Of a stretch of 61,222 bases of DNA, positions 5,941 through 42,760 are shown piece by piece; within the stretch, counting starts at the first letter, position 1; each line of letters begins with the position of its first letter. Under the pieces are notes generated by a model. It made no database searches. It was not told where the DNA came from and saw only the letters and a list, made by a program, of their open reading frames with translations. The DNA is from Clostridiales bacterium (GTDB lineage: Bacteria; Bacillota; Clostridia; Christensenellales; Borkfalkiaceae), in assembly GCA_015069285.1 (NCBI GenBank), contig SVIX01000005.1:1-61222 (forward strand). The letters run 5' to 3'. Made by a program: the position numbers and the translations under genes.

Positions 5941-5946
5941 CCTTTT

Positions 5947-9088: not shown

Positions 9089-9355
9089 TTAATGCATCCA
9101 AAAAAAGTAGAGAAAGAAAAGAACCAACACGAGCGCTACGATAAACATACAAAATACAGGCATTACCGCTCCTAACGCCGCTTTATAAATCGCCCAACGC
9201 TCTTTACGGGTTACGTTCGCCTCGCGCAAAGCTTTTCTGTTTTCGCGACTCTTACGGGATTTATAGCCCGTAATATATTCGCTATCCATACTTGCTACGA
9301 CGCGACCGTCGTCCACGAATTTTTCCTTTTTCTTTTTAGACTTTTTTTCGCGCAT
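9089..9355 (-). CDS. Small membrane protein of unknown function, last gene of the Opp run
   Basis: 88 residues. A very basic N-terminal two-thirds (start MREKKSKKKKEKF, then many K/R) is followed by one long hydrophobic segment (about residues 64-86: VMPVFCMFIVALVLVLFFLY) reaching almost to the C-terminus, so it looks tail-anchored with a cytoplasmic basic domain. Not recognised as a family. It begins 15 bp after oppF and is followed by a strong terminator, so it is co-transcribed with the transporter. A weak AGAGGC ribosome site precedes ATG 9353-9355. Confidence 0.65.
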   Translation of the reverse strand: MREKKSKKKKEKFVDDGRVVASMDSEYITGYKSRKSRENRKALREANVTRKERWAIYKAALGAVMPVFCMFIVALVLVLFFLYFFWMH

Positions 9356-9370
9356 TCTTTGCCTCTTGCA

Positions 9371-10411
9371 TTAGTCTTCTTGCGAGTACAAATGACACGC
9401 AACTTTATGACCGTTTCCGTAATCTTTAAATTTCGGCGCAACCGTTTTACAAATTTCCATACATTTTCCGCAACGGGTATGGAATTTACAACCCGACGGA
9501 GCGTTGATGGGGCTGGGAATATCCCCGCTCAAAATAATACGGTTCATCTTCACGTTGGGGTCGGGTACGGGTACAGCCGAGAAAAGGGCCTCCGTGTACG
9601 GATGCATAGGATTTTCAAAAATATCCTGCGTAGAGCCGTATTCGACCATACTGCCCAAATACATTACCCCTATATAATCGGAGATATGTTCTACAACGGA
9701 TAAGTCGTGCGAAATAAAGATATACGTTAAACCCATTTCCTTTTGCAAATCACGCAAAAGATTGATAATTTGCGCTTGAATGGAAACGTCGAGCGCAGAT
9801 ACGGGTTCGTCGCAAACGACGAATTTCGGCTTTAACGCAAGCGCCGTTGCGATACAAATACGTTGTCTTTGTCCACCCGAAAATTCGTGCGGATATCTTT
9901 CGTAATAATGATACGGCAACCCGCATTTTTTCATTATATCCAACACGTAAGCTTTTAAATCCTTTTTATCGACGAGTTTGTGTTCCAACACCGCTTCGCC
10001 GATAATTTCACCGATAGGCATACGGGGCGACAAACTCGAATACGGGTCTTGGAAAATAATTTGCATCGACGGACGTAAAGCGTTCATTTCTTTCGTTTTC
10101 AAAGCGTTGATGTCTTTTCCCTCAAAGAGAATTTCACCTTCCGTTGCGGGGTGTAAACGCAAAATCGTTCTACCGAGCGTCGTTTTTCCGCAACCAGACT
10201 CGCCCACGATACCAAGCGTCGTGCCTTCTTTAATTTCAAAGCTTACGTCGTCGACCGCTTTTAAATATTTCGTAGGACGGCCGAAGAAATCCGTTTCTAC
10301 GGGGAAATATTTTTTCAAGTTTTTAACGACGAGAATTGCGTCGGAAGTATTTTCCGTTTGCGTTTCTTCAACCAATTCTTCCGTCACCTTCGTTTCTTCG
10401 ATATTAGACAT
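9371..10411 (-). CDS. oppF: Oligopeptide ABC transporter ATPase (OppF/DppF type)
   Basis: 346 residues, single nucleotide-binding domain. Walker A is GESGCGKTTLGR (about residue 70), signature SGGQRQR, Walker B VVCDEPVSALD, switch His in FISHDLSVV. The C-terminal oligopeptide/dipeptide extension has the Cys cluster CKFHTRCGKCMEIC, typical of Opp/Dpp ATPases. It pairs with OppD to drive peptide import. Its start overlaps the end of oppD by 8 bp, which indicates translational coupling. Confidence 0.95.
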   Translation of the reverse strand: MSNIEETKVTEELVEETQTENTSDAILVVKNLKKYFPVETDFFGRPTKYLKAVDDVSFEIKEGTTLGIVGESGCGKTTLGRTILRLHPATEGEILFEGKDINALKTKEMNALRPSMQIIFQDPYSSLSPRMPIGEIIGEAVLEHKLVDKKDLKAYVLDIMKKCGLPYHYYERYPHEFSGGQRQRICIATALALKPKFVVCDEPVSALDVSIQAQIINLLRDLQKEMGLTYIFISHDLSVVEHISDYIGVMYLGSMVEYGSTQDIFENPMHPYTEALFSAVPVPDPNVKMNRIILSGDIPSPINAPSGCKFHTRCGKCMEICKTVAPKFKDYGNGHKVACHLYSQED

Positions 10412-11573
10412 TCTTTTCCTCCTTCGCGTCCTCGTACAAATAACAAGATACGCTATGCGTGGGCGACACTTGGATAAAGCCCGGATATTCTCCGTTGCAC
10501 TTGCCTATACACTTATCACAACGGTCTTTAAAGTAGCAGTAATTGGGCATATCGATAGGATTGGGAACTTGCCCGGGGATATTGTACAATCTATCCACCT
10601 TACGACGCACGACGGGCTTGCTCTTTTGTAAGCCGATGGTATAGGGGTGTAAAGGATTTTCAAAAATTTCCTTGGTCGTTCCTCTTTCGATAACGCGACC
10701 TGCATACATAACGACGACGTAATCCGCCATTTCCGCAATAACACCTAAGTCGTGCGTGATTAACATAATCGAACCGTCAATCTTCGTTTTAATGTCACGA
10801 AGTAAATCGAGAATTTGCGCTTGAATGGTAACGTCGAGCGCCGTCGTCGGTTCGTCTGCTATAATTAAACGAGGGTTGCAAGAAAGCGCAATCGCAATCA
10901 TAACACGCTGACGCATACCGCCCGAAAGCTCGTGCGGATAGCAATCGTACACCCGTTCAGGCGCGGCAATCCCAACAAGCTCCAACATTTCAAGGCTTCT
11001 TGCCTTGGCTTGTTCTTTCGTGCAATTCGGGGTATGTAACAATACCATTTCGTTCATTTGATACCCAATCTTAAAGACGGGATTCAACGAAGTCATCGGT
11101 TCTTGGAAAATCATAGCGATTTGTTCGCCTCTGATTTTACGCATATCCGCATAGGGAATTTTCGCAATATCAAACGCTTTATCCCCCATATTAAAACGGA
11201 TACTTCCGTCTACGATTTGTCCTCTCGGTCCTTGTACGAGTTGCATAAGCGATAAGCTCGTTACCGATTTTCCGCAACCGGACTCGCCTACGACGCCCAC
11301 CGTCGCGCCTTTGGGAATATCGAACGATACTCCGTCCACCGCTTTTACGACGCCTGCGTCCCCAAAGAAGTAGGTGTGCAAGTTGTCAAACTCAACGATA
11401 TTATTCTCGTCGCGCATTTGCGTCGTATACGCTTCTTCGGAAACGGCTTTTTTCTTTCTCTTTTCAAGCTCACGAATGATGCGCGCGTTTTGTTTGGCAA
11501 TCGCGCGCGTTTCTTTTGCGCTTAAATAATGTGCTTTTTCTTTTTTCGTGGAATCATTTTTCTTAAATAACAT
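10404..11573 (-). CDS. oppD: Oligopeptide ABC transporter ATPase (OppD/DppD type)
   Basis: 389 residues. A charged N-terminal extension of about 60 residues (lysine/alanine rich, probably helical) precedes the ATPase domain. Walker A is GESGCGKSVTSL, signature LSGGMRQR, Walker B IIADEPTTALD, switch LITHDLGV. The Opp-type C-terminal Cys motif is CYFKDRCDKCIGKC. It works as a heterodimer with OppF. It begins 37 bp after oppC in the same transcription unit. Confidence 0.95.
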   Translation of the reverse strand: MLFKKNDSTKKEKAHYLSAKETRAIAKQNARIIRELEKRKKKAVSEEAYTTQMRDENNIVEFDNLHTYFFGDAGVVKAVDGVSFDIPKGATVGVVGESGCGKSVTSLSLMQLVQGPRGQIVDGSIRFNMGDKAFDIAKIPYADMRKIRGEQIAMIFQEPMTSLNPVFKIGYQMNEMVLLHTPNCTKEQAKARSLEMLELVGIAAPERVYDCYPHELSGGMRQRVMIAIALSCNPRLIIADEPTTALDVTIQAQILDLLRDIKTKIDGSIMLITHDLGVIAEMADYVVVMYAGRVIERGTTKEIFENPLHPYTIGLQKSKPVVRRKVDRLYNIPGQVPNPIDMPNYCYFKDRCDKCIGKCNGEYPGFIQVSPTHSVSCYLYEDAKEEKNV

Positions 11574-11610
11574 AATTTACACCAATATTTTCCTGTTTTG
11601 CTCTTTCGGA

Positions 11611-12732
11611 TTACTTCTTGGATTTCGGGTCAAACGCGTCGCGAAGTCCGTCGCCAATGAAGTTAAAGGCAAGCACCGCAAGCACGATACAAAGCCCTGC
11701 GGGAATCCACAAGTTGGGATAATTTTGCAATATAATCGGGTCTTTAATATCCCCAATCATACCGCCCCAAGCGGCGTAGGGTTTAGGTACGCCCAAGTTC
11801 AAATACGAAAGCGTTGCTTCCGAAAGGATAACGCTACCAAGCCCCAACGTCATAGACACGATAAGCTGTGGCATTACGTTCGGAATTAAATGGCTGAAAA
11901 TTTTGCGTTTGGTGGAAAGACCGCGCGCCGTTGCGGAAACCATAAATTCCTGCTCACGCAAGGACAAAATTTGTCCGCGCACGATACGAGCGATACCCGT
12001 CCAACCAAAGAAGGTTAAAAACGCCATCATATAATAAATTCTTACGCTTGCTTTTATTCCGAGCGCGTCCAAAATCGCACCGATAATCAACATTAACGGC
12101 AAAGAAGGCAAACAGTTGAAGATATCTACGATACGCATTATCAAGGTATCTACCCATTTCCCGAAATAGCCCGCAAGTCCACCTAAAATAACGCCGAGGA
12201 TAACTTCCATAAATACAACGATAAAGCTAATCGTAAGCGAAATTCTACCACCGTACATAAGACGCGTCAATACGTCCATACCGTCGGCGTCCGTACCAAA
12301 CCAATGTTCGGAGGAAGGCAACGCGTGGTCGTCTACTTTTTTCGCCGTTTTATCCATTTGGTAAACGGTATACGTTTCGTACTGTAATTCGCCGTTTTCG
12401 TCTAATACGGGTTGACCGAATTCGTCGTACATAGGTACTTCGTAGGTAAACTCGGTTACGACGACGTTCATACGGTCGGTATCGTAATCAATTTCCGTTT
12501 CGCCGTAGGGCGAGAACAACGGACCGATAAAGGAGAATAAAAACAAACCGATAATCAATACCAATCCGACGATAGAAAGTTTGGAGCGGAAAAAGCGTTT
12601 CATTACCAACTGCGAAGGGCTCAACGCCTTCACGTTATCCGACAGGAAACCTTGTTGCTCCGTTTGCGTTTCCGCCTCTGCGTTTTCCACAAGCGTTTCT
12701 TCTTGCAATCCGTCAAGTTTTTCTTCGTTCAT
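11611..12732 (-). CDS. oppC: Oligopeptide ABC transporter permease (OppC type)
   Basis: 373 residues with about six membrane segments and the permease coupling loop (SATARGLSTKRKIFSHLIPN). Compared with typical OppC (~300 residues) there is an acidic cytoplasmic N-terminal tail of ~35 residues and a longer extracellular loop after the first membrane helix (about residues 75-120, with YDEFGQPVLDENGELQY). That loop is in the place where OppC usually has a short loop before the GTD motif (HWFGTDADGMDVLTRL, present). Confidence 0.94.
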   Translation of the reverse strand: MNEEKLDGLQEETLVENAEAETQTEQQGFLSDNVKALSPSQLVMKRFFRSKLSIVGLVLIIGLFLFSFIGPLFSPYGETEIDYDTDRMNVVVTEFTYEVPMYDEFGQPVLDENGELQYETYTVYQMDKTAKKVDDHALPSSEHWFGTDADGMDVLTRLMYGGRISLTISFIVVFMEVILGVILGGLAGYFGKWVDTLIMRIVDIFNCLPSLPLMLIIGAILDALGIKASVRIYYMMAFLTFFGWTGIARIVRGQILSLREQEFMVSATARGLSTKRKIFSHLIPNVMPQLIVSMTLGLGSVILSEATLSYLNLGVPKPYAAWGGMIGDIKDPIILQNYPNLWIPAGLCIVLAVLAFNFIGDGLRDAFDPKSKK

Positions 12733-12745
12733 TTCTTCCGCCTCC

Positions 12746-13726
12746 TTATTTCAATTTTACGCGCGGGTCAACCACCGCATACATAATATCCGTCAAAAGC
12801 ATACCTAAAACCGTCAACACGGCAAGGAACATATTATATCCCATAACGAATGGAATGTCCCCTGCGTTCAACGCTTGATACGCCTTTAAGCCGATACCGG
12901 GAATCGCGAATACCTGTTCAATAATCATTGAACCGCCGAATAACCCGGGCAACAATCCCGCCAACATCGTTACGAGCGGAATCATCGTATTTTTAAACGC
13001 GTGCTTATATACGACCGTCATTTCCGACGCGCCCTTAGCTCTTGCGGTACGAATATAATCCGCCGTCAACACTTCCAACATATTCGTACGGGTATAACGC
13101 ATCAACCCGCCAATGCTCAAAATAACGACGGTTACCATCGGAAGAACCAAATGCCACGCTTTATCCCAGAAGAGTTCCCAAGGCGTTGCGTTAAGCATAC
13201 CGCTACTTACCAAACCCAAACTCGTATCAAACCAGCCTAAGTCAAAGGCAAACGTTTTAATTAAGATTGCCGAGAAAAAGAAGGAAGGCAAGGAAATACC
13301 CAACATCGTAATTACCGTCGTCGTATAGTCGAAAATACTATACTGTTTGACCGCCGCGCGAACGCCGAGTAAAATACCGAGCGGATAATAAATGAGTAGC
13401 GCGATAAGCGTTAATAAGAAGGAAATCCACATATTATCGCCGATAACTTCCATTACGGGCGCGTCGAATTGGAAAGACATACCAAAATCGCCCTGTAACG
13501 CTTTGCCGAGCCATTTAAAATATCCAACGATAACGGTATCGTTTAAGCCGTACAATTCCTTCATCGCCGTAATACGTTCGGGACTGATTTCGCTGTTGGG
13601 GTTTAACGTAAACTTTTGTTCTACGTAGTCACCCGGCATCATTCTCAATAACGCATACATCAATAACGATACCCCGAAGATAATAAGTACCGATAATAAA
13701 ATTCTTTTCGTAATATATTTAAACAT
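12746..13726 (-). CDS. oppB: Oligopeptide ABC transporter permease (OppB type)
   Basis: 326 residues, the usual OppB length. The N-terminal membrane helix MFKYITKRILLSVLIIFGV and the MPGD motif are classic for OppB/DppB. The coupling loop is ADYIRTARAKGASEMTVVYK, followed by EQVFAIPGIG. It forms the translocation channel with OppC. It is separated from oppA by a 116-bp gap that contains a strong hairpin, and oppC follows after 13 bp. Confidence 0.95.
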   Translation of the reverse strand: MFKYITKRILLSVLIIFGVSLLMYALLRMMPGDYVEQKFTLNPNSEISPERITAMKELYGLNDTVIVGYFKWLGKALQGDFGMSFQFDAPVMEVIGDNMWISFLLTLIALLIYYPLGILLGVRAAVKQYSIFDYTTTVITMLGISLPSFFFSAILIKTFAFDLGWFDTSLGLVSSGMLNATPWELFWDKAWHLVLPMVTVVILSIGGLMRYTRTNMLEVLTADYIRTARAKGASEMTVVYKHAFKNTMIPLVTMLAGLLPGLFGGSMIIEQVFAIPGIGLKAYQALNAGDIPFVMGYNMFLAVLTVLGMLLTDIMYAVVDPRVKLK

Positions 13727-13797
13727 ACTTCACCTTGATACTTTTAAGCGTTCTCTTTGAAAGCGCACGCCTAAAAACTCAAATTTTCCTTTTGTTT

Positions 13798-13829
13798 GCG
13801 AAGGGTTGGGCTTAAGCGCAACCCTTCGC
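13798..13829. terminator. Hairpin between oppA and oppB, U-tract only on the plus strand
   Basis: GCGAAGGGTTG (13798-13808) pairs perfectly with CAACCCTTCGC (13819-13829). Transcribed from oppA it is followed by AAACAAAAGG, so it is not an intrinsic terminator in that direction. Reading on the plus strand it is followed by GCATTTTTTT. Its place after the binding-protein gene fits a processing or 3'-end-protecting element that lets oppA outnumber the permease genes. Confidence 0.6.
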
Positions 13830-13842
13830 GCATTTTTTTCAG

Positions 13843-16533
13843 TTAAGCGTTTTGAATAAAGCTTACCTTCCACATTTCACTTAAAGGTCCTGCAAACGGC
13901 GTAGGATTTTTCTTAAACGTCGTTGCGTCAAGTACCTTATTGTTGTAAACGTTCATATCGCTTCTTTGGTATACGGGAAGTTCTACCGCAAGTTCCATAA
14001 CGAGGTCGGACGCGTCACGGTAAATTTGCGCACGTTCCGCCGTAATAATCGTTTCACGGCCTTCGTCGATTTTTTGGCTAATCTCTTCCACGAGCGCCTT
14101 TTCTTCCGACGTACCGTCCGTCTTAATGTGGTCGTAACCCCAGTTCAAGATAGACGTTGCTTTACTGTCTTTATGGTAAACTTGGTACATATCGGGGTCA
14201 AGCGAAGCGGACCAAGCAGCCGCCCAAATCGCCAAGTTACCGCTCGCAAGCTTGAAGAGCGCTCTCGAATCGGGAATAACTTCGATTTCCATACCCAATT
14301 CATTGAGGATATCACGCGCCTTTAAGAAGGTCTTATACGCAGGGTGGTCGGTCGTATCGCCTGCAACGGTAAACGTATATTTCAAAAGTTCACCGTCCGT
14401 ATCGTACCACTTACCGCCTCTATACTCGCAATCACCTGCTTGCAAATAGTTACGAATCGTTTCTTTTACTTTCGTTTCGGAATCGTAATAGGGATAATAT
14501 TGCTCGTCGGTTTTACCGTCTTTGCTGATAGGCTCCCAAGCTTCGATACCGTCGTTTTCAAATTCGTCGTATACCCAAGAAGTCTTGGAGAACGCACGAT
14601 AGATAGGTTCGGACAACGTACCAGGGTAGTAATTTTGTACGAGCGAAATATCCATAGCGGACATAATCGCACGACGAACGTTAATATTAGGTACGAATTT
14701 CGCGTTGATACCGATATAACCGTAACCTGCCGTCTTGGACATAATTCTGTTCAAATCGTTGTGGTTGTCAATAATCGCAATATTATCCGTCGTAGCCGAA
14801 GGGTCTGCGTAGTGGATAGCACCGCTTTGCAAAGCAGTCATCGTGTTTGCGGAGTTGACAACTTTATATTGAATGTGCTTAATTTTTGCGTTATAAACGG
14901 CGTCTCTGTTTCCACCCGTCGTGACGAAGTTTTCGTTACGGATAAAGTAACAAACGTTATTATCCAAGAAACCGTTTGCAAGCTTTTCAAAGCTTTCCGC
15001 GTCTTTGCTCCAATCGTAAACGTAGTCGTTCATCGTAGACGCTTTATAAATACCCGCGCCCATAGGCACTTTATTTCTGCGTTTCAACGCATTCATAAAT
15101 TCAACGCTCGAGTATTTTACACCGAAATCGCTATCGTAATCGGTATCGGAAAGCGCGGCTTCCGTAAGTTCGTTCGTCGAATAGTAATGCATAGGCGATA
15201 CGGAGAACGCGAAATTCCATTTTGCTTTCGGGTCAACGCCGTTGATGGTAATTTCAAGCATTTCGTACTGAGAATAATCTTCTTCGGGATATTTCTTTTG
15301 CCCGTCGAATTCGCTCGCCGACTTAATTTTGATACCTTCGATGTTTTTAATCAAAAGTTGACCGTTTTGCTTACGCGCTTCGTAGTAAAGTTCTTTGTCT
15401 TCCGCTGCAAACAAGGTAGAAATCGTACCCGAAGTAGCCCAACCGCCAAGGATTTGCGCAACGAATTCGTCGTCCGTAAGGTACGCGCTCTTTACTTCTT
15501 CAATCGCTTGTTCTTTGGTATACGTAGCGTTGGGGTCGTATCCGTACAAATTCCATTCGATAATATACTTACCGTTTTCGTCCTTCGGATAGGTGGTAAC
15601 GCCTGCTACCGTTTCCGATTTACGGGAAACTAAGCCTTCGTTATAGAAATATAATTGCCAAGGTTGCGTGAACGGATATTCCGTTTGCATAGACGCAAGG
15701 TCGGAAGACGCCGCGTTCCAGTCGCTCGTAATTTCTTCAATCCAATAGGATTTAATCGTTTCGATATCCGCTTGAATTGCGTTTACGTCGTACGTTCTGT
15801 TGATTTGTTGTTGCGCGCAAAGGGTATTATACGTCGCAATCAAGGAATTGGCGTTGCTTGCTTCGGTTACGTATGCAATAATCGCCATCATACGTTGACG
15901 GGAAAGGGTCGCGAAGGTATTTTCCAACGCGGCTTGCGCGCCCTCGGAAATGTTACCCTCTTGTTGCATTTGATAATTACGCAAACCTACGATGTCGGTA
16001 GAGTACATCGTCGAAGAACCCGTGTACGCAGGGTCAAGATATACGTACATATTGAAAAGTACGTCGTGCGCCGTTAAAGGCTGACCGTCTGAGAAAAGAA
16101 TATCTTTTTTCAAAACCATTTGATAAACCGTCGTACCGTCTTTATCACCCGTCGTCGTTGCTTCGCCTCTATCGTCATACATAATTTCGCTGTAATCAAG
16201 CGTTACTACCGGCTCGTCCTTACCGTATACGACGACGTTACCCGTATCGTCCGACGAAAGCATACTAATTTGCGTTTGTCCTACTACGCCCGTATCGTAA
16301 GCCGACGTAGCGAAGAACGGACTGAATACGCCGTCAAATTCACCAGAGCTAAACACCAACGCGTCTTTTTCGTTGTCAAAACTCGTAGACCCGCTCGGAG
16401 GGGTAGGTCCGTCGCCACTGTTGTCAGGTTTACAGCTGACGAGTGCAGGCGTCGCAAACGATGCAACCAACAAAAAACTTACGATAGACAAAAGTTTTTT
16501 GCTTTTCAAGAATCTTGAAAATTTCTTTTCCAT
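13843..16533 (-). CDS. oppA: Peptide ABC transporter substrate-binding lipoprotein (family 5), oversized
   Basis: Lipoprotein: basic start, hydrophobic segment and lipobox ALVS-C with Cys34. Family 5 solute-binding protein features are clear: start of lobe I at about residue 90 (VTLDYSEIMYDD), LKKDILFSDGQPLTAHDVLFN, later NINVRRAIMSAMDISLV and WAAAWSASLDPDMYQVYH. At 896 residues it is about 300 longer than usual OppA. The extra sequence lies mainly between residues 190 and 480 (many Ala/Gln helices, LSRQRMMAIIAYV, and an FAAEDKELYYEA segment). It delivers extracellular peptides to OppBC. Peptide rather than another family 5 substrate is inferred from the neighbouring surface protease. Confidence 0.93.
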   Translation of the reverse strand: MEKKFSRFLKSKKLLSIVSFLLVASFATPALVSCKPDNSGDGPTPPSGSTSFDNEKDALVFSSGEFDGVFSPFFATSAYDTGVVGQTQISMLSSDDTGNVVVYGKDEPVVTLDYSEIMYDDRGEATTTGDKDGTTVYQMVLKKDILFSDGQPLTAHDVLFNMYVYLDPAYTGSSTMYSTDIVGLRNYQMQQEGNISEGAQAALENTFATLSRQRMMAIIAYVTEASNANSLIATYNTLCAQQQINRTYDVNAIQADIETIKSYWIEEITSDWNAASSDLASMQTEYPFTQPWQLYFYNEGLVSRKSETVAGVTTYPKDENGKYIIEWNLYGYDPNATYTKEQAIEEVKSAYLTDDEFVAQILGGWATSGTISTLFAAEDKELYYEARKQNGQLLIKNIEGIKIKSASEFDGQKKYPEEDYSQYEMLEITINGVDPKAKWNFAFSVSPMHYYSTNELTEAALSDTDYDSDFGVKYSSVEFMNALKRRNKVPMGAGIYKASTMNDYVYDWSKDAESFEKLANGFLDNNVCYFIRNENFVTTGGNRDAVYNAKIKHIQYKVVNSANTMTALQSGAIHYADPSATTDNIAIIDNHNDLNRIMSKTAGYGYIGINAKFVPNINVRRAIMSAMDISLVQNYYPGTLSEPIYRAFSKTSWVYDEFENDGIEAWEPISKDGKTDEQYYPYYDSETKVKETIRNYLQAGDCEYRGGKWYDTDGELLKYTFTVAGDTTDHPAYKTFLKARDILNELGMEIEVIPDSRALFKLASGNLAIWAAAWSASLDPDMYQVYHKDSKATSILNWGYDHIKTDGTSEEKALVEEISQKIDEGRETIITAERAQIYRDASDLVMELAVELPVYQRSDMNVYNNKVLDATTFKKNPTPFAGPLSEMWKVSFIQNA

Positions 16534-16556
16534 TTTTTATTTCTCCTTTTTTGTTT

Positions 16557-17978
16557 TTATTCTTCCGTTTCTATTTTTATGGTCGTAACGTTATCCGCGC
16601 TCGTTTCCACAATGAGTACGTTTTCTTGTCCTTCAGCAGGCGCATTGAAATACAATCCGCGACAAGCTGTATCCGTATGGATAACCGCGTCGTAATACGT
16701 TTCGTTTTTCCGTACGATACGGCAATCTTTTACCGTTACGCCCTCAAATTTGCCTTCGCTACTAATCTCGTACGCCAAGAATCCAATTCTTTGTTCGCCG
16801 GGTATCTTATTCCCTGATACGAAAAACTCGCTCACGTTTACTTTTAACGTCACGTTTTCCAAAATGAGGTCTTTTACCAAACCTTTCATCGTACCGAAAA
16901 TACTGTGCGCTTTATAGCCTGCGGTTTTCTTTTCCGCCAACGAGGTTACCGTTACGTTTTTCAAGGCGTATCCGTTACCGTAAATCGTACCCGTGAAATT
17001 ATTTTGCGCGTCCCAAGCAACGCTGTCCGCATAATCTACGTCTTCAAGCAAATACCATTTGCTTGCGTTCGTCAACGTTTTCTTGTTTTCGTTGGAAATA
17101 AATTCAAATCTACCCGCAAGGTATTTCACGTAAATTTTAACGTCGTTCGTTTCTACCGTTTCCGTCTTTTCTTGATTGGTTTCCGGGTCGATTACCGTTA
17201 CTTCTTCCGTACGCGTACCGGGATGCACCAAATCCATCGGCATTACGTTCGTCAAGTCTTCATCCATATAAAAATCAAGGAAGGTGTAATTACTTAAGCT
17301 CGGACGAATGTAGTCGGGACGACGGAAAAGTTCGCCGTCTTTTTTCTCGTACAATTTATCCGAAATCGTTGCGCCGGGGTTTACCGTATAACTACGTATT
17401 TCCCTTTCGCTCGTTACCATCGTTCCGTCCTCTTGCTCCACTTCTTCCGTCAAGCAAAGGATAAAACGGTAAACTTTCGTCCATTGCGCAACCAACGTAA
17501 TATCTTCGGTAACTTTATCTTTCGCAAAATTCCACGGCTCGCCCGTAACGAGTACGGGGGTTCTGTTCTCCCCTTCTCCTTCGTAAATCACCTTTCCGTC
17601 TTCGTCCGTTTTTGCTTGGAACCAAGACTTCGAAGCGATTGCCGCCAAATTCTTTTCCTCTTCGGAAGACGCTTTCGTTTCGTTTATCAACTGATAATTA
17701 CGTCTTGTAGGCACTTTAACGGACGCTTGCGTGTTCGCGTCGACGTAGCCCGGCGCAGGCGCAAGTGAATTCTCTTTCACAAGCGCGTACGTCACCGAAG
17801 AATTGCTCCCGTACGTTCCGCCGTTCGCGTCGTACGTAACGCAACAATTATATCCTTCCTGTCTTTTCTTTTCCTCTTGATTGAGCCCGTAGGTACACGA
17901 CGTAAACACGCCCGCTAAAAGCACCGTCGTCAACGCCATAGTCACTCCAATCAAAATTCTTTTAAACAACTTATTCAT
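16557..17978 (-). CDS. InlB-repeat / GLUG-like surface lipoprotein
   Basis: 473 residues from ATG 17976-17978, which has GGAGG 11 nt upstream; the frame is open for 9 more codons but the next start has no ribosome site. Lipobox TS-C, Cys28. After it come InlB/Listeria-Bacteroides repeat-like segments (YDANGGTYGSNSS, ending TLVAQWTK). A segment then resembles the GLUG/beta-helix repeats seen in surface adhesins (TGTIYGNGYALKNVTV; FGTMKGLVKDLILENVTL; IGFLAYEISSEG). A surface-bound, probably ligand-binding protein. It is the gene immediately before oppA (23-bp gap). Confidence 0.75.
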   Translation of the reverse strand: MNKLFKRILIGVTMALTTVLLAGVFTSCTYGLNQEEKKRQEGYNCCVTYDANGGTYGSNSSVTYALVKENSLAPAPGYVDANTQASVKVPTRRNYQLINETKASSEEEKNLAAIASKSWFQAKTDEDGKVIYEGEGENRTPVLVTGEPWNFAKDKVTEDITLVAQWTKVYRFILCLTEEVEQEDGTMVTSEREIRSYTVNPGATISDKLYEKKDGELFRRPDYIRPSLSNYTFLDFYMDEDLTNVMPMDLVHPGTRTEEVTVIDPETNQEKTETVETNDVKIYVKYLAGRFEFISNENKKTLTNASKWYLLEDVDYADSVAWDAQNNFTGTIYGNGYALKNVTVTSLAEKKTAGYKAHSIFGTMKGLVKDLILENVTLKVNVSEFFVSGNKIPGEQRIGFLAYEISSEGKFEGVTVKDCRIVRKNETYYDAVIHTDTACRGLYFNAPAEGQENVLIVETSADNVTTIKIETEE

Positions 17979-18049
17979 TCTTGAATAATCCTCCTGCATC
18001 CGCACAACGGCGATTGCTCATCGCGCACGCCTTTTTCGGATATTTTATT

Positions 18050-20899: not shown

Positions 20900-20913
20900 T
20901 GCTTTCTACCTCC

Positions 20914-28542: not shown

Positions 28543-28596
28543 GCCTCCTACTTACTCTTCTGACCGCAACGCTTAAGGTTACGGATTCTTCCTTTT

Positions 28597-28628
28597 ACCG
28601 AGTTTGACGAGAATACGTCAAACTCGGT
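28597..28628. terminator. Hairpin between the Ig-like lipoprotein and protease genes
   Basis: Perfect 13-bp stem: ACCGAGTTTGACG (28597-28609) with CGTCAAACTCGGT (28616-28628), 6-nt loop. On the minus (transcribed) strand it is followed by AAAAGGAA rather than U. On the plus strand CGTTTTATTCTTTT follows. It begins 12 nt after the stop codon. Confidence 0.6.
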
Positions 28629-28640
28629 CGTTTTATTCTT

Positions 28641-31988: not shown

Positions 31989-32032
31989 TCTTCCTAACTC
32001 CTTTAATGGATTTTTATTGCCCTATTTATAAA

Positions 32033-34789: not shown

Positions 34790-34799
34790 TCTATCCTCC

Positions 34800-34829
34800 T
34801 TGGAAATATTGAAAAACAATCTTTTCCAA
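34800..34829 (-). promoter_or_regulatory. Leader hairpin touching the ribosome site of the LRR lipoprotein
   Basis: Minus strand TTGGAAA-AG-ATTG, 5-nt loop, CAAT-A-TTTCCAA, ending directly at the AAGGAGG site (34793-34800). It could modulate translation. The 118 bp between this gene and the VWA gene show only weak promoter-like sequence (TATAAG, TATTAT). Confidence 0.4.
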
Positions 34830-34873
34830 TAAGCCTTTTAACTTATACCTATAATAACTTTAAACTTTTGCCC

Positions 34874-34908
34874 CGTAGAAGAAAGTCGTTTTTTAACTTT
34901 CTTCTACG
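34874..34908. other. Hairpin after the VWA gene without a U-tract
   Basis: CGTAGAAGAAAGT (34874-34886) pairs perfectly with ACTTTCTTCTACG (34896-34908). It lies 9 nt after the VWA stop codon. The next minus-strand bases are GGGGCAAAAG, so transcripts may read through into the LRR lipoprotein gene. Confidence 0.55.
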
Positions 34909-34917
34909 ATAAGGCTT

Positions 34918-37668: not shown

Positions 37669-37680
37669 ACGGTTACTCCT

Positions 37681-39564
37681 TTATGCGTCATGCGCTTGTA
37701 ATAAGCGTTCCAAAATCAGTAAGGCAACGAGCGTCGCCGCAAAATAAATCAATAGGTCTAAATTATCATTTTCCTTCTTTATCGGCACGATTAATTCGTA
37801 TAATTCGTCAACCGTTTTTCCAATGTTGCTTTCTACCGAAGGAATTTTTACGAAAAACTGTTCTTCAACGGGTTTCCCCGACATCGGAGTTTGTACCAAC
37901 GTATACGTACCGTATTCGCTAACGACGAGTTCCGCGGGGAAATTTTCAAACGTTTCTTTGATTTTACCCGTGCTGGATTCTACCGATAAATCGTTACCTC
38001 TCGCATTGAAAGATACCGTATCGTTTACGTCAAACGCGTACTCCGTCAACGTCGAAGGCATAAAATATTCGAAAATGTTATACATCAAGATAGGGAAATC
38101 TACGAACATCGAAAAGTCTGCGTAGTTTACGCTGAAAGGCATCAATACCACTTTTTGATTTTCATCTTCCCTAACGAGCAACACGGGGTCGCCTGCGCAA
38201 TATAACAAAGGCGTAAAACCGTCGAAATTAATCAACTTCTTATATTTTGAAAGTTGCATTTTTTCAGGATTGATACGCTCGGTAAGCTCGTGCGTTTCCC
38301 CGTAAGAAAGATTGAACTTTCCGTTTACCTCACTACCCATAATAACGGGCAATCCTTCGGGGACTTTGTTCATATTAACGAGCATTACTACGCCGTCCGT
38401 CGGCATAATATCGGGCGTGGCGTTTTCGTAGATGTAAAAATCGTAACCTTCTACGGGCAATTCCGACGTTTCTACTTCCTTGTTGATTTCCTTAAATTCA
38501 ATCGACCAACGGGTGCTTAACGTGTCCCGAACACTCATAACCGACCCCGCGAAGAAGATATTCGCGTTCGGGCTATAATACAAAATCTTTAATTCGGGTT
38601 TTTTACCGCCGTAAATATAGAAGTCGTTATCTTCGGGGAAGGAATCGTTTTCGGAGATATACACGTGTACGGATTCAAACTCGTGGATTGCCGTTTGCAT
38701 ATTTTGCGTAACGAAGGAAACTTTTTTCGTTTCATCACCGCTACAACGCACGGGTAAAGACATTGGTATTGTACCGCCCCCGTTTGCGCCTTTTACGTCA
38801 CAATGTACCATAAGGTCCGTATCGCGTTGATACGCTGCCACGGAAACGTAAAACGTATAGTAGTTTTCTTCTACAACCGCTTCGCAACTTAAAATCGCCG
38901 CGTTCCATTCGCCGTTTTCAGATACGTCTACCACCGTTACACCGTTATGCGAAAGATATTCGGTACCCGTATAGAGCAACACTTCCGTGTCCGCGTTGAC
39001 GTCAACGATTTTTTGCGCAAGCTTTACCGCTCCGTCAATATCAGCCGAACCGTACGTACAAGCGTCCTCGTCTACCAATTCTGCAAGCGTTGCAAGCAAA
39101 TCCAAGGATTCTTCGCTCGTACTTCTTTGCGAAATGTACGACGCTTCTTTGCCCGCGAAAATAACCGTTACGTAACCGTTTTCTGCTAATACTTCCTCTG
39201 TCATTTTAGAAACTTCAGATACCGCGCGTTCAAAACGAGAAACTTCGTCGTATTCTGCGCGCATCGCCGCCGAAGCGTCGATAATGGCAACTTTTTCTAA
39301 AATTTCAGGCTTTTGGTTTTCTAAAATTACCGGTCGAGCTAAAATGAGCGCGCACGACGTAATTACCAAAACCTGACAAATGAAGAGCAAGATATTCCTA
39401 AACTTGTTAATAGGAATTTTCTTCCGTCTGTATTTTAAGCTTAATTCCCATACGAACGTACTGGAAACAAACTTTTGTTGAAAATTCGGTTTTAAGATAT
39501 AAATAAGGATAAGAACGAGTATCCCGATTAATCCTAAAAAACCTAAAGGTGCAAGCCAACTCAT
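37681..39564 (-). CDS. BatA-like membrane protein with a degenerate VWA domain
   Basis: 627 residues. The BatA/aerotolerance-type N-terminus has a first helix MSWLAPLGFLGLIGILVLIL, a basic loop with FVWELSLKYRRKK, and a second helix. The VWA domain that follows starts with IIDASAAMRAEYD, so the DxSxS metal site is changed to DASAA and metal binding may be lost. A C-terminal helix (LDLLIYFAATLVALLIL) closes it. Its ATG overlaps the stop of the DUF58 gene by 4 bp, which means translational coupling. Predicted partner of the VWA protein and of MoxR in the membrane. Confidence 0.86.
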   Translation of the reverse strand: MSWLAPLGFLGLIGILVLILIYILKPNFQQKFVSSTFVWELSLKYRRKKIPINKFRNILLFICQVLVITSCALILARPVILENQKPEILEKVAIIDASAAMRAEYDEVSRFERAVSEVSKMTEEVLAENGYVTVIFAGKEASYISQRSTSEESLDLLATLAELVDEDACTYGSADIDGAVKLAQKIVDVNADTEVLLYTGTEYLSHNGVTVVDVSENGEWNAAILSCEAVVEENYYTFYVSVAAYQRDTDLMVHCDVKGANGGGTIPMSLPVRCSGDETKKVSFVTQNMQTAIHEFESVHVYISENDSFPEDNDFYIYGGKKPELKILYYSPNANIFFAGSVMSVRDTLSTRWSIEFKEINKEVETSELPVEGYDFYIYENATPDIMPTDGVVMLVNMNKVPEGLPVIMGSEVNGKFNLSYGETHELTERINPEKMQLSKYKKLINFDGFTPLLYCAGDPVLLVREDENQKVVLMPFSVNYADFSMFVDFPILMYNIFEYFMPSTLTEYAFDVNDTVSFNARGNDLSVESSTGKIKETFENFPAELVVSEYGTYTLVQTPMSGKPVEEQFFVKIPSVESNIGKTVDELYELIVPIKKENDNLDLLIYFAATLVALLILERLLQAHDA

Positions 39565-40460
39565 GCCATTATACCTACCTTCAGTAACTCACCAAAAAGC
39601 ATTTTTTCAATCTTCTTATCCGTATCGATTGAAATGAATTCCGCCCCACGCGATACGCAGAAAGACTTTAAGTCGTCTTTGAAATCCGTTAAGGCTTCTT
39701 GATACGCCATTTGTAAGCTACGGGTTATTCTTAATTTCATATTTCTCGGGTCTGCTAAATCTTCAGCTTCCGAGTCAATCAAATTCAATCTACCGTTGTA
39801 AACCGGTTCAATTTCATCAGGCGTCATAATTTGTAAAAGCAATACTTGTCTTTTCTTGTAAACGAGATAATCTACCGCCTTCTTCCAATCACTCTTGGTG
39901 AAGAAATCGGAAATAATTACCGTCAAGCCGTCGTTCGAGCCGGTATTCGGACAAGACGTAATGGCTTTTCCGAGATCAGATTCTCCCGCAAATTCAAGAT
40001 TTTCAAGCTCGCTAATCGCCCTGAAAAACGAAGTTTTCCCAACGATAGTGCCAAAAGGGTCTTCCGCTTTGTCGCCTTTTACCAATTTGAAAGACAATTT
40101 ATCCATATTGTGAACGGACAAGAATCCAAGCGCCGCCGCAACGGCAACCGAATAATTCGCCTTTTTACGGTCTTCCTTGCCCATCGACGCGGAACAGTCC
40201 AAAAAGATTTGAACGTGCATCTGTCTTTCGTCCGTGAAAAGTTTTAAGAAAAACTTCTCAAAACGGCTATAAAGGTTCCAGTCGATACGTCTTATATCGT
40301 CGCCGAGCATATACTCACGATAGTCCGCAAATTCTACGGTTTGTCCGTACGTACGTACGAGATGTTTACCACCGAAAAATCCGCGAAGGTCCGCTTTCAT
40401 ATTCAATGCAAGCGTTTCAAGACGCCCGAAAAACCCATCGTTTAAATACGAGTTTTTCAT
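39561..40460 (-). CDS. DUF58-domain protein of the MoxR operon
   Basis: 299 residues, no signal peptide. The DUF58 signature YREYMLGDDIRRIDWNLYSR is at about residues 49-68, followed by a VWA-like core with FLDCSASMGKEDRKK. DUF58 proteins are almost always next to MoxR ATPases and VWA membrane proteins; they probably link the ATPase with the membrane parts. It starts 12 bp after moxR and overlaps the next gene by 4 bp. Confidence 0.92.
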   Translation of the reverse strand: MKNSYLNDGFFGRLETLALNMKADLRGFFGGKHLVRTYGQTVEFADYREYMLGDDIRRIDWNLYSRFEKFFLKLFTDERQMHVQIFLDCSASMGKEDRKKANYSVAVAAALGFLSVHNMDKLSFKLVKGDKAEDPFGTIVGKTSFFRAISELENLEFAGESDLGKAITSCPNTGSNDGLTVIISDFFTKSDWKKAVDYLVYKKRQVLLLQIMTPDEIEPVYNGRLNLIDSEAEDLADPRNMKLRITRSLQMAYQEALTDFKDDLKSFCVSRGAEFISIDTDKKIEKMLFGELLKVGIMA

Positions 40461-40472
40461 TCTTTAACTCCC

Positions 40473-41669
40473 TTATTGTTCGCTTTCCGTTTCTTCGCTC
40501 GCAACTTCTTCAACTACTTCAGTTTCGTTGTTTTTCATAGCCTTTTTCGCCGCTTTCTTCGCTTCTTTCATCGCTTTCTTCATTGCTTTCGCGTCCATAG
40601 CGACTTCTTCTCCAACGGCAACTTCTTCGTTTGCAACTTCTTCGCTCACGATAGGCATTTCGATATTTTCAACGGGCGTAAGCTTGTAACGCTTGCTTAC
40701 TTCTGCAACAATCATCTTAATGATTTCATCCGCAGAAACGCGCTCTGCAACAGCTTCGAAGGTCAACTTCAAACGGTGACGGAGAACGGGATATGCAAGT
40801 TCGTTGATATCGTTGTAGGATACGTTGAATCTACCGTTCATAAGCGCCTTAACTTTCGCCGCGGAGATAAGCGCTTGTCCTGCACGAGGGCTGGCGCCAA
40901 GACGTACGTACTTTTTCGCCGCTTCGCTTGCACATTCGCTATCAGGGTGCGTTGCCGAGCAAAGCGTCATCGTGTATCTCATAACTTCTTCCGCTACGGG
41001 GATTTGGTTTGCCGTTCTTCTCATTTCAAGCAAATCTTCGCCGTTACAAGCCGCGTCGGAAACTTCCGCCATCGTCTTTTGCGTCATGTTAACGATGTCC
41101 ATAAGTTCGTCAAGGGAAGGATTTTTAACGATAATCTTGAACATGAAACGGTCCATTTGCGCTTCGGGCAAAGGATACGTACCGTCTTGTTCGATAGGGT
41201 TTTGCGTAGCAAGTACGAAGAACGGTTCTTGCATCTTTCTCGATACGCCCATAACGGTAACCGTGTGTTCTTGCATGGCTTCAAGAAGAGCCGATTGCGT
41301 TTTCGGCGTAGCACGGTTGATTTCGTCGGCAAGAATGATGTTACTGAAAATAGGACCAGGTTGGAACTCGAATTTAGAGTTTCCTTCTTCGTCTTTTACG
41401 ATGATATTCGTACCCGTAACGTCGGCGGGCATCAAGTCGGGCGTGAACTGAATACGCGCAAACGGCATATTGAAAACACGACCAAGCGTTCTAACCAAAC
41501 GCGTCTTACCAACCCCGGGCACACCTTCAAGCAATACGTTACCGCCTGCAATCATCGCGATAACGGTTGCTTCTACAACTTCCTTTTGTCCAACGACGTC
41601 ACGCTCGATTTGCTTGAAAATATCCTTGCATTGCACACTAAACTTCTCGATGTTTTGTTCTGTAACCAT
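40473..41669 (-). CDS. MoxR-family AAA+ ATPase
   Basis: 398 residues. The MoxR AAA+ core has Walker A GVPGVGKTRL (about 53), FTPDLMPADVTGTN, Walker B ILADEINRATPKTQSALLEAMQE, sensor 1 FVLATQNPIEQDGTYPLPEAQ, and sensor 2 region RLGASPRAGQAL. The last ~60 residues are an unusual lysine/alanine-rich then acidic tail (AMKKAMKEAKKAAKK, then EEVASEETESE) that normal MoxR proteins lack. MoxR ATPases act as chaperones for VWA-containing protein complexes, and the three genes after it encode such parts. Confidence 0.95.
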   Translation of the reverse strand: MVTEQNIEKFSVQCKDIFKQIERDVVGQKEVVEATVIAMIAGGNVLLEGVPGVGKTRLVRTLGRVFNMPFARIQFTPDLMPADVTGTNIIVKDEEGNSKFEFQPGPIFSNIILADEINRATPKTQSALLEAMQEHTVTVMGVSRKMQEPFFVLATQNPIEQDGTYPLPEAQMDRFMFKIIVKNPSLDELMDIVNMTQKTMAEVSDAACNGEDLLEMRRTANQIPVAEEVMRYTMTLCSATHPDSECASEAAKKYVRLGASPRAGQALISAAKVKALMNGRFNVSYNDINELAYPVLRHRLKLTFEAVAERVSADEIIKMIVAEVSKRYKLTPVENIEMPIVSEEVANEEVAVGEEVAMDAKAMKKAMKEAKKAAKKAMKNNETEVVEEVASEETESEQ

Positions 41670-41716
41670 AATATAATTTCCTCTCTTATTTATTTTCTAT
41701 TTTTTATTTTTTTTCT

Positions 41717-42760
41717 TTAGAGTATGACGTCAAAATACGTCTGAATCAAAAGTCTTAATTCTTCAGGAATATCCTCGCCCGTCGCTAAGTATTCCATAGC
41801 TTGATTGTAATAGTCTTCAAATACGTCGCGATAATAAGTGTCGCCGTCTATTACCATATTGTTTTCAGTATACGCGCCGTTCGCGCCGGGGTTAGGCTCA
41901 CCTTCTTCTTGGCTCGGTTGGTCGGACTTACCGGGGGTATCACCTTGTCCCGGTTGACCTTCACCTTCACTGCCTTCGCCTTCGCCTTCACCTTCGCCTT
42001 CGCCTTCACCGTCGCCGATTTGACCAAAGGTTGCCACGTACTCGACGTCCTCGCCAACGCGGTAATCACATCTGTACGGGTCGGTAACGCCGTCTGACCA
42101 TTCGATAAACGCCCATCCGTCTTCCGCTACGGCAACTACTTCGGTAGCGTTTCCGCCTTGCTCGAAGATTTGTACCTCGTCACCTTCAATCATACCGCCT
42201 TCTTCGGCAACGTAGCTTACGGTTACGGTAACGACGGGTTCGTCGGGAATAATCATATCAATTACTTCTTTACCCGTAGAAACGATACCCTCGTCGCTCA
42301 AGCCCGTCACGGTCGTCATACCCGCGCCCAAAACGAAGAGCACGCAAAGCCCTATAATTAGCGCACGGGAAAATACGAAACGCATAAGCCCTGCATCCAT
42401 AAGCCCAAGCTTAAGTTTTGCGTCCTCTCTTTGCTTTTGCGCAATATACGATTCGTCCTCGATAAATTCGTTCATCGTAATCATACGCTCTTCCGTACCA
42501 AGTTGCTTGTCGATTCTCTCCGCAACCTGCCTACTCGTCGGCTTATACTTCTTCACGTATAAAAGCGGGGTAACAATCGCCGTCGTAAGCACGAACGCGA
42601 GGATAGACCATAACAACCCTTCCGCGTCTAAAAACCAAAAGATAAACGCGACGAGGAAGTTCACGGCAAAACCAATCGTCAGTCCGCTAAACAACGCCTT
42701 AATAAAACCCTCTTTCGCCAAACGTGAATAGTATTTGTCGAATAACTGTTTTACGTCCAT
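41717..42760 (-). CDS. Membrane protein with InlB-like segment and Glu-Gly repeat, first gene of the MoxR operon
   Basis: 347 residues from ATG 42758-42760, chosen for the AAGGAG site just upstream. Two helices near the N-terminus (IGFAVNFLVAFIFWFL and LWSILAFVLTTAIVTPLLYV), a cytoplasmic helical part, then a third helix (about 127-150) and an exported C-terminal half. The exported half has an InlB-like segment (VVAVAEDGWAFIEWSDG) and a GEGEGEGEGEGEG tract from a 6-bp DNA repeat (about 41960-42010), then a Pro/Gly/Ser linker. No family recognised for the whole. It is followed by moxR after 47 bp. Confidence 0.7.
   Translation of the reverse strand: MDVKQLFDKYYSRLAKEGFIKALFSGLTIGFAVNFLVAFIFWFLDAEGLLWSILAFVLTTAIVTPLLYVKKYKPTSRQVAERIDKQLGTEERMITMNEFIEDESYIAQKQREDAKLKLGLMDAGLMRFVFSRALIIGLCVLFVLGAGMTTVTGLSDEGIVSTGKEVIDMIIPDEPVVTVTVSYVAEEGGMIEGDEVQIFEQGGNATEVVAVAEDGWAFIEWSDGVTDPYRCDYRVGEDVEYVATFGQIGDGEGEGEGEGEGEGSEGEGQPGQGDTPGKSDQPSQEEGEPNPGANGAYTENNMVIDGDTYYRDVFEDYYNQAMEYLATGEDIPEELRLLIQTYFDVIL

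What the first reader, a model, noticed from the sequence alone, without database searches (positions are those of the whole stretch)
9089..42760. A surface protein-capture, proteolysis and peptide-import locus coupled to a MoxR-VWA complex
Seen: one minus-strand run encodes an LRR/InlB lipoprotein, a large Ig-like lipoprotein, a 2542-residue subtilisin with its own LRR domain, two more InlB lipoproteins, and a full Opp transporter. The run directly follows a MoxR/DUF58/BatA-like/VWA operon with only a U-less hairpin between. Family knowledge: LRR_5 and InlB proteins bind proteins, S8/PA proteases degrade them, Opp imports peptides, MoxR ATPases assemble VWA complexes. Inference: the locus is a peptide-foraging counterpart to the Sus-type glycan systems, with the MoxR complex as assembly factor. 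I know of no described system with this composition.
Basis: partly seen in the sequence, partly recalled or inferred. Interest (0 to 1): 0.8.

Follow-up and report, generated by a model that had tools for sequence, protein, structure and literature searches.

The report
Conserved protein-eating operon of gut Clostridia
This stretch of a gut Clostridia genome encodes a giant surface protease next to the pump that would import its peptides, a pairing kept in nearly every related genome that has the protease, here joined to a separate machine that travels with its own large surface proteins; it looks like a one-locus kit for eating protein.

Summary
The genes are as described, but they form two conserved modules. 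Module 2 (9089-28542): S8-LRR protease, optional LRR lipoprotein, InlB lipoprotein, OppABCDF, small membrane protein. Of 347 genomes of the order, 74 have the protease, 75 the long OppA, 72 both; OppA lies on the same strand within 20 kb at 66 of 76 protease loci. InlB directly precedes OppA at 45 of 46 OppA ORFs. Protease and OppA trees mirror each other, beside each other or not (r=0.90, 0.92). This supports protein digestion coupled to peptide import, a one-locus relative of the lactic-acid-bacterial proteinase-plus-Opp system. Module 1 (28641-42844): membrane protein, MoxR, DUF58, BatA-like, VWA, LRR lipoprotein, giant lipoprotein. MoxR is not a general assembly factor: at the cut-off used, 28 of 74 protease genomes have module 1. 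Yet the modules are fused in one order in four genera of two families, and the fused protease lacks the promoter seen in many unfused ones. Ten literature searches found no description. Function is inferred.

The parts
41717..42844 (-). N375: membrane protein with long acidic tail, first gene of module 1 (ATG at 42760 or GTG at 42844)
   Evidence: only Flg_new_2 weakly in Pfam; 24 N375-MoxR junctions seen in the fetched regions
40473..41669 (-). MoxR AAA+ ATPase
   Evidence: Pfam AAA_3 1.4e-61, AAA_lid_2
39561..40460 (-). DUF58 protein with a DxSxS motif
   Evidence: Pfam DUF58 1.2e-32; DxSxS in 37 of 37 DUF58 ORFs
37681..39564 (-). BatA-like membrane protein with VWA-like domain
   Evidence: Pfam BatA 2.9e-8
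34918..37668 (-). VWA protein (916 aa), two VWA stretches, DxSxS motif, N- and C-terminal hydrophobic segments (by eye)
   Evidence: Pfam VWA_2 1.7e-27; DxSxS in 41 of 41 VWA ORFs
34820..34917 (-). VWA|LRR gap with hairpin lacking a U tail (about 34874-34908)
32033..34819 (-). LRR_5 lipoprotein (928 aa), constant neighbour of the VWA gene
   Evidence: Pfam LRR_5 5.3e-174; 38 of 38 loci
28641..31988 (-). BIGa: giant lipoprotein with Big_3 domain, in a slot that elsewhere holds the unrelated BIGb
   Evidence: Pfam Big_3 5.2e-11
28543..28640 (-). module border BIG|S8, hairpin without U tail at 28597-28628
20914..28542 (-). S8 subtilase with PA, fn3_5 and C-terminal LRR_5 domains (2542 aa)
   Evidence: Pfam Peptidase_S8 5.5e-40, PA, fn3_5, LRR_5; PDB C5a peptidase 8e-54
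18050..20899 (-). InlB-repeat + LRR lipoprotein (949 aa), optional gene between S8 and InlB
   Evidence: S8 followed by LRR then InlB in 7 of 65 S8 rows
16557..18005 (-). InlB-like lipoprotein (482 aa), directly before OppA
   Evidence: 45 of 46 OppA rows, the 46th being the second half of a split OppA; 19 of the 20 fetched OppA loci away from S8
13843..16533 (-). long OppA lipoprotein (896 aa), about 290 positions longer than AppA between its two aligned segments
   Evidence: SBP_bac_5 3.3e-26; AppA 1xoc profile match 1.3e-17
13727..13842 (-). OppA|OppB gap with hairpin lacking a U tail (about 13798-13829)
   Evidence: 28 of 36 gaps of 25-400 nt have z below -2
12746..13726 (-). OppB permease
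   Evidence: Opp4B best in NCBIfam, below its cut-off
11611..12732 (-). OppC permease
   Evidence: Opp4C best, 329.8 bits against cut-off 350
10404..11573 (-). OppD ATPase
9371..10411 (-). OppF ATPase
9089..9355 (-). o88: 88-aa basic protein with one C-terminal hydrophobic segment, after OppF
   Evidence: no Pfam match; 27 of 46 OppA rows read OppB-C-D-F-o88 in the fetched regions
42911..42940 (-). promoter TTGACA-18-TATAAT with TGn, start of the module 1 + 2 run
   Evidence: 12 of 12
43309..51705 (-). giant LRR_5 lipoprotein (2798 aa), ended by a terminator before the run; an LRR gene precedes N375 in 14 of 18 loci where that gene is visible

Best explanation
The locus is two surface modules joined into one transcription run. 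Module 2 digests protein at the cell surface and imports the peptides: the S8 protease cleaves extracellular protein; an InlB-type lipoprotein beside OppA and the long Opp4/App-like OppA catch the fragments; OppBCDF import them. The LRR arrays of the protease and of the optional LRR lipoprotein probably hold protein substrates. Module 1 is a MoxR ATPase with membrane-bound VWA proteins whose constant neighbour, and likely client or partner, is one LRR lipoprotein, usually followed by one of two interchangeable giant lipoproteins; most likely it uses ATP to mature, load or present these surface proteins. In this genome and in some relatives module 1 stands directly upstream of module 2, which there lacks a recognisable promoter of its own, so surface display and peptide uptake would be switched on together. 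Shown here: gene content, conserved order, co-occurrence, tree mirroring, lack of a promoter pattern at fused proteases, hairpins at three borders. Inferred: substrates, direction of the peptide flow, co-transcription, ATP-driven action of module 1.
For: Co-occurrence over 347 genomes of the order: protease 74, long OppA 75, both 72 (Fisher 4e-68); with both cut-offs loosened to 1e-20, 93, 103 and 79 (2e-41). 66 of 76 protease loci have OppA on the same strand within 20 kb (58 downstream, 8 upstream); the other ten have none on that contig. Mirrored trees, r=0.90 side by side (n=41) and 0.92 where not side by side in the assembly (n=16). InlB directly before OppA in 45 of 46 rows and 19 of 20 fetched loci away from S8. 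AppA and Opp4 are the nearest named relatives. C-terminal hydrophobic segment in 55 of 60 complete proteases. LRR follows VWA in 38 of 38 module-1 loci. Promoter pattern of 11 of 12 or better before S8 in 18 of 44 unfused against 0 of 17 fused loci (p=0.001). Hairpins (z below -2, gaps of 25-400 nt) at OppA|OppB 28 of 36, VWA|LRR 12 of 21, BIG|S8 9 of 16, against S8|InlB 5 of 13, LRR|BIG 8 of 27, N375|MoxR 3 of 17, InlB|OppA 5 of 29.
Against: No experiment or expression data. Family 5 binding proteins also bind nickel complexes and chitin oligomers, and such proteins rank beside AppA in the low-confidence fold comparison (mean pLDDT 49.5). The protease could act on one host or bacterial protein instead of food. 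The window's protease and G042's lack the C-terminal hydrophobic segment seen in 55 of 60, so they may be released or held otherwise. A 16-locus part of the protease tree has no Opp seen beside it, and G045 has the protease but no long OppA match; G006, G008 and G037 have the OppA but no protease match. Module 1 is missing from 46 of 74 protease genomes at the cut-off used, and its tree follows the protease tree only weakly when fused (r=0.48, n=15). Fisher tests treat genomes as independent, and the mirrored trees were not corrected for the species tree. The hairpin contrast with S8|InlB (5 of 13) is weak.
Confidence: 0.7

Rival explanations
1. Adhesion and host interaction: the protease cleaves a specific host, plant or bacterial protein (as the C5a peptidases that it resembles do, recalled), the LRR and InlB lipoproteins are adhesins, and Opp serves peptide sensing or general nutrition.
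For: Best solved relatives of the catalytic part are C5a peptidases (8e-54) and of the LRR part cell-surface LRR proteins; NCBIfam lists the LRR adhesin HupY/LrrG among weak relatives, far below its cut-off.
Against: Near one-to-one co-occurrence, linkage and mirrored trees with a complete transporter fit nutrient capture better than a single-target protease; the fn3_5/PA architecture is shared with nutritional cell-envelope proteinases (recalled).
Confidence: 0.15
2. Two unrelated operons that happen to be neighbours: module 1 is a general envelope-maintenance MoxR system, module 2 the peptide system, and fusion carries no meaning.
For: In the 347-genome set 28 genomes have both protease and module-1 VWA, but they share a contig in 6 and are adjacent in 4; where apart, their trees do not correlate (r=-0.07, n=9); in the genus set the co-occurrence is not significant (p=0.10).
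Against: Same order in 15 loci plus 2 cut off by contig ends, over four genera and two families; discordant S8 and VWA trees suggest that the junction arose or was rebuilt at least twice (quick trees, no formal topology test); no strong promoter pattern at fused S8; 28 of 31 module-1 genomes have the protease (4e-18).
Confidence: 0.3
3. Recycling of the cell's own surface: the protease trims or turns over the giant LRR and Ig-like lipoproteins, and Opp recovers the peptides, with MoxR/VWA as quality control.
For: The locus encodes several giant surface proteins and, in most relatives, a protease with a C-terminal hydrophobic segment side by side.
Against: Protease and Opp persist in genomes without module 1 (46 of 74 protease genomes at the cut-off used).
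Confidence: 0.08

Closest known systems
Lactic-acid-bacterial proteolytic system (cell-envelope proteinase PrtP/PrtL plus Opp/Opt)
   Same: Surface proteinase (S8 with fn3_5 and PA, recalled) and an oligopeptide ABC importer; in L. delbrueckii both parts are repressed by added peptides (PMC5561223, passages seen).
   Different: There prtL is described as monocistronic, with the opp and opt genes in operons of their own; here protease, InlB lipoprotein and OppABCDF form one conserved locus, with LRR arrays and a long OppA.
Extracellular proteases plus Opp3 of Staphylococcus aureus (PMC6495380, title and start of abstract in a search listing only)
   Same: Title states that protease-mediated growth on host proteins is opp3 dependent.
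   Different: Gene arrangement not read here; linkage of protease and opp genes there was not checked.
MoxR/VWA chaperone couples (NorQ/NorD, RavA/ViaA, CbbQ/CbbO; PMC9976466, passages seen)
   Same: MoxR ATPase genetically paired with a VWA protein bearing a MIDAS-type motif, proposed to bind the client.
   Different: NorQ and NorD are called most likely cytosolic there; here the BatA and VWA proteins carry hydrophobic segments (by eye) and the constant neighbour is an LRR lipoprotein, not a metalloenzyme.
Bat-type operons (BatA/B, MoxR, DUF58; recalled)
   Same: Pfam BatA, DUF58 and MoxR genes in one run.
   Different: LRR lipoprotein and often a giant lipoprotein appended; the NCBIfam BatB model matches with 24.1 bits against a cut-off of 350.
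SusCD glycan utilisomes and RagAB of Bacteroidota (search listing)
   Same: Surface lipoproteins and import of large nutrients acting together.
   Different: No TonB-dependent barrel among the scanned genes; import is by an ABC transporter.

Membership tests
S8 cell-envelope proteinase / C5a peptidase type | catalytic Asp, His, Ser motifs of subtilases | tested here: met
   D229, H302, S643 in the window protein
S8 cell-envelope proteinase / C5a peptidase type | PA insertion and fn3_5 domain | tested here: met
   Pfam PA 2.9e-10, fn3_5 2.5e-13
S8 cell-envelope proteinase / C5a peptidase type | C-terminal surface anchor | tested here: not met
   hydrophobic C-terminal segment in 55 of 60 complete relatives but not in the window protein or G042; no claim that the window protein is cell-bound
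S8 cell-envelope proteinase / C5a peptidase type | proteolysis of nutrient protein | not testable with these tools
   needs enzyme assay
Opp4/App oligopeptide transporter | complete OppABCDF with family-5 binding protein | tested here: met
Opp4/App oligopeptide transporter | NCBIfam Opp4 cut-offs | tested here: not met
   Opp4C 329.8 of 350, Opp4B 261.8 of 450, Opp4A 62.6 of 650 bits: nearest subgroup, not a member
Opp4/App oligopeptide transporter | binds oligopeptides | not testable with these tools
   AppA (solved with a nonapeptide) is the best solved relative by sequence
MoxR/VWA couple | MoxR Walker A and VWA DxSxS motif | tested here: met
   Walker A pattern in 30 of 35 MoxR ORFs (some MoxR ORFs are cut short), DxSxS in 41 of 41 VWA ORFs
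MoxR/VWA couple | client matured by ATP-driven remodelling | not testable with these tools
   client inferred only from constant adjacency
Sus-type or RagAB importer | TonB-dependent SusC-like barrel and SusD-like lid | tested here: not met
   no such Pfam domain among the 32 window proteins scanned at E 0.001

The most novel reading that the evidence does not exclude
Module 1 is an ATP-driven trans-membrane display machine: MoxR and DUF58 in the cytoplasm work through the BatA and VWA ectodomains to load LRR and giant lipoproteins, with the second slot swappable between unrelated proteins as exchangeable bait. Fused to module 2 it forms a Gram-positive protein 'utilisome' in which bait, protease, InlB lipoprotein and OppA with its helical insertion (residues about 197-385, the longest confident part of an otherwise poor model) act as one complex.
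Probability: 0.2. Interest if true: 0.85.

Novelty: new variant of a known kind. Interest (0 to 1): 0.6.

Why it matters
How uncultivated gut Clostridia obtain nitrogen from protein is poorly known (general knowledge). A near-constant protease-InlB-Opp locus in an order of such bacteria gives a genetic marker and a testable mechanism for protein foraging, comparable in use to polysaccharide utilisation loci. The constant MoxR-VWA-LRR set gives a candidate client, a surface LRR lipoprotein, for a class of ATPases that is among the least studied AAA+ families (PMC9976466, passage), and the interchangeable giant lipoproteins give natural variants to compare.

Tried and rejected
MoxR complex as general assembly factor of protease and Opp: rejected as a general statement, because 46 of 74 protease genomes lack module-1 VWA at the cut-off used. 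Border between VWA and LRR: rejected (38 of 38). Sus-type importer: no SusC/D domain found. Homology of BIGa and BIGb: rejected, only signal peptides align. RNA families at the gathering threshold and tRNAs in the window: none. Protease plus long OppA beyond the order: among 321 genomes of the class the two hit lists at E 1e-40 share no genome outside the order (31 and 7 genomes); other Opp types beside those proteases were not looked for. Structure: OppA was modelled from six sequences with mean pLDDT 49.5 and pTM 0.31; Foldseek ranks AppA first but with nickel- and chitin-binding proteins close behind at low TM-scores, so it decides nothing. Structures of BIGa and InlB482 were not obtained. 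Searches of solved structures: none for the InlB482 profile, Big_3 part and two weak LRR-protein matches for the BIGa profile, none for VWA as a single sequence. A species-tree control for the mirrored trees was not completed; only MetK identities to the window were obtained.

Limits of the counts. The 'strong' hits were picked from the printed lists after seeing them: 19 of 93 protease genomes and 28 of 103 OppA genomes at E 1e-20, and 21 of 52 VWA genomes at E 1e-10, were dropped as weaker matches; the loose protease/OppA count is, none was made for VWA. Linked distances are between match starts, not gene starts. Counts are over the regions that I chose to fetch, not over all genomes. In the n=16 set 'not side by side' means another contig or far away; G010, G029, G289 and G365 may be assembly breaks. 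The two partial fused loci (G009, G018) were moved from the unfused class by hand. Of the 16 proteases without Opp beside them, G016, G017:C111, G020 and G026 lie at contig ends. Lipobox counts use a lenient pattern over the first 75 residues. ORF starts are the first start codon, not verified. Trees are of the quick kind, without bootstrap or topology tests. Genomes are mostly incomplete assemblies, so absence is uncertain. The chance figure for linkage assumes a 1.7-Mb genome and independent loci.

Full report
Where it lies. The window is part of a 1.41-Mb, 77-contig, 76% complete assembly. Of 18 loci that encode a relative of the catalytic part in the named genome collection, 14 are MAGs titled Clostridia or Clostridiales bacterium, one an uncultured bacterium, and one each Erysipelotrichaceae, Lachnospiraceae and Planococcus; some titles name animal gut samples such as sheep colon and water deer colon. 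The order could not be named by any search.

The run starts behind a 12-of-12 promoter with TGn at 42940-42911, which follows a terminator at 43284-43253 that closes the upstream giant LRR gene. Between 42.9 and 27.5 kb the scan finds no minus-strand terminator-like site with more than 7 pairs. Promoter- and terminator-like sites are at the shuffled expectation and for promoters; terminator-like sites are 43 against 30 (sd 5.3), over both strands. After the last gene a long inverted repeat can be read in the 8770-9088 gap; the scan did not flag it.

Relatives show two modules. Regions around protease and VWA genes were fetched from same-genus and same-order genomes and annotated with profiles built from the window's proteins and their relatives. 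Module 1 reads N375, MoxR, DUF58, BatA, VWA, LRR of 807-992 aa, then usually a giant lipoprotein. The LRR gene follows VWA on the same strand in 38 of 38 module-1 loci fetched; the three diverged VWA loci fetched (G025:C7, G043:C128, G000:C10) have no LRR there. The next slot holds BIGa in 12, BIGb in 16 and something else or a contig end in 10. BIGa and BIGb share nothing beyond the signal peptide. Where the gene before N375 is visible it is an LRR gene in 14 of 18 loci. Module 2 reads S8, optional LRR, InlB, OppA, B, C, D, F, o88. Eight of 66 linked order-level loci have OppA upstream of S8 instead. So LRR928 and BIGa belong with MoxR, and the border lies at 28543-28640.

Protease and Opp are a near-constant pair. 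In 347 genomes drawn from the order, 74 have the protease, 75 the long OppA, 72 both (Fisher 4e-68); protease only: G339, G380; OppA only: G037, G153, G347. With looser cut-offs the figures are 93, 103 and 79. In the genus set of 49 the table is 35 both, 1 protease only, 3 OppA only, 10 neither (p=4e-7). Of 76 protease loci 66 have OppA on the same strand within 20 kb and ten have none on that contig; none has it farther away on the same contig. Among 321 genomes of the class, no genome outside the order has both at E 1e-40. InlB directly precedes OppA in 45 of 46 rows, the other being the second half of a split OppA. On a protease tree of 65 rows, 16 of the 21 rows without an OppA beside them fall in one part of the genus; four of these 16 lie at contig ends. 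In 15 of those 16 genomes a long OppA is present, in G020 only as a fragment (G045 is the exception). Of 20 OppA loci fetched away from S8, 19 still read InlB-OppA and none shows an S8 match. Protease and OppA distances correlate at r=0.90 side by side (n=41) and 0.92 where not (n=16, four of them perhaps assembly breaks). This is not corrected for the species tree.

Module 1 is a looser partner. Of 31 order genomes with module-1 VWA, 28 have the protease (4e-18), but only 28 of 74 protease genomes have module 1; in the genus set the association is not significant (p=0.10). VWA distances follow the protease at r=0.48 when fused (n=15) and -0.07 when not (n=9). Still, the fused order occurs in 15 loci with VWA present plus two cut by contig ends, in four genera of two families. 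G236's protease lies inside, and G218's in the next wider supported clade around, the group of BIGb-type fused loci, while both VWA genes lie outside the supported BIGb-type clade. On the VWA tree starred branches force at least three changes of the label 'fused'. The same junction was therefore probably made or rebuilt at least twice; the trees are quick ones without topology tests. When fused, no strong promoter pattern stands before S8: 11 of 12 or better in 0 of 17 fused against 18 of 44 unfused loci (p=0.001), 10 or better in 2 of 17 against 24 of 44.

The cluster has moved. The window's MetK, 3.7 kb beyond the giant LRR gene, is 90% identical to G031's, 87% to G005's, 78% to G042's and 54% to G289's. 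The protease is instead 76% identical to G042's, 59% to part of G032's, about 50% to those of G289 and G365 in another family, and 43-44% to G005's and G031's. VWA and OppA are also nearest G042's (80% and 76%). The cluster thus seems to have a history of its own, most simply by transfer between gut Clostridia; transfer of MetK is not excluded.

Hairpins mark borders. Stable hairpins, nearly all without a following U run, are most frequent after OppA (28 of 36 gaps with z below -2), after VWA (12 of 21) and after BIG (9 of 16); then S8|InlB 5 of 13, LRR|BIG 8 of 27, N375|MoxR 3 of 17, InlB|OppA 5 of 29. In the gaps printed, sequences differ while the position is kept. I read them as processing or stabilising elements that set protein ratios within one transcript; this is inference.

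Mechanism. The catalytic part resembles C5a peptidase (8e-54), the LRR part solved LRR proteins. The transporter is nearest Opp4 and AppA, below the curated Opp4 cut-offs. OppA carries about 290 more positions than AppA between its two aligned segments; the low-confidence model shows a confident helical part at about 197-385. Most lipoproteins carry a lipobox by a lenient pattern (OppA 40 of 44, InlB 42 of 45, LRR 56 of 64, BIGa 11 of 12, BIGb 14 of 18; protease 7 of 62). The protease has a C-terminal hydrophobic segment in 55 of 60, but not in the window or G042. The most likely reading is cleavage at the surface, capture by InlB lipoprotein and OppA, import by OppBCDF.

Literature. Ten searches showed no description of such a locus in their listings from the held library; subscription papers and preprints are not covered, and long lists were cut. 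The nearest known systems are the lactic-acid-bacterial proteinase plus Opp, with prtL monocistronic and opp and opt in operons of their own in L. delbrueckii (PMC5561223, passages), S. aureus growth on proteins through proteases and Opp3 (PMC6495380, title and start of abstract in a search listing only), and MoxR/VWA couples such as NorQ/NorD (PMC9976466, passages). PMC3587842 was seen in two passages only.

Verdict. The peptide-foraging reading is well supported by comparative evidence but untested. The MoxR assembly-factor reading is not supported in the form given; MoxR/VWA has its own constant LRR neighbour, with a recurrent but optional tie to the protease-Opp set.

Noticed in passing
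window 2402-2701, also 1276-1484 and 1707-1776: Tandem repeats (36 bp x 8.3, 92% match; 79 bp x 2.6; 26 bp x 2.6) that share a TTTACAA core, between an ArsR regulator and an MFS gene.
   Followed up: no
L097 (G000:C10), VWA match at 5752-7539: A 1384-aa frame in the window's own genome matches both BatA and VWA proteins: a second VWA locus without an LRR neighbour on this 8.6-kb contig.
   Followed up: partly
slot after the LRR gene in module 1, window 28641-31988: Two unrelated giant lipoproteins (BIGa about 1100 aa with Big_3; BIGb about 1650 aa with InlB repeats) occupy the same place in different genomes.
   Followed up: partly
window 9089-9355: o88, a small basic membrane protein without Pfam match, follows OppF in 27 of 46 OppA rows and lies elsewhere in the module in a few loci.
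   Followed up: partly
L015 and similar loci (G025:C3 and relatives): Many proteases without adjacent Opp sit near a 1400-aa lipoprotein (GLUG motif in the one scanned) and genes that by eye read like polyferredoxin and thioredoxin-like proteins.
   Followed up: no
window 5947-8769 and 53301-54761: Two rhamnosidase-like proteins flank the locus (Glyco_hydro_106 1.5e-6, below its cut-off; Bac_rhamnosid6H 4.1e-7).
   Followed up: no
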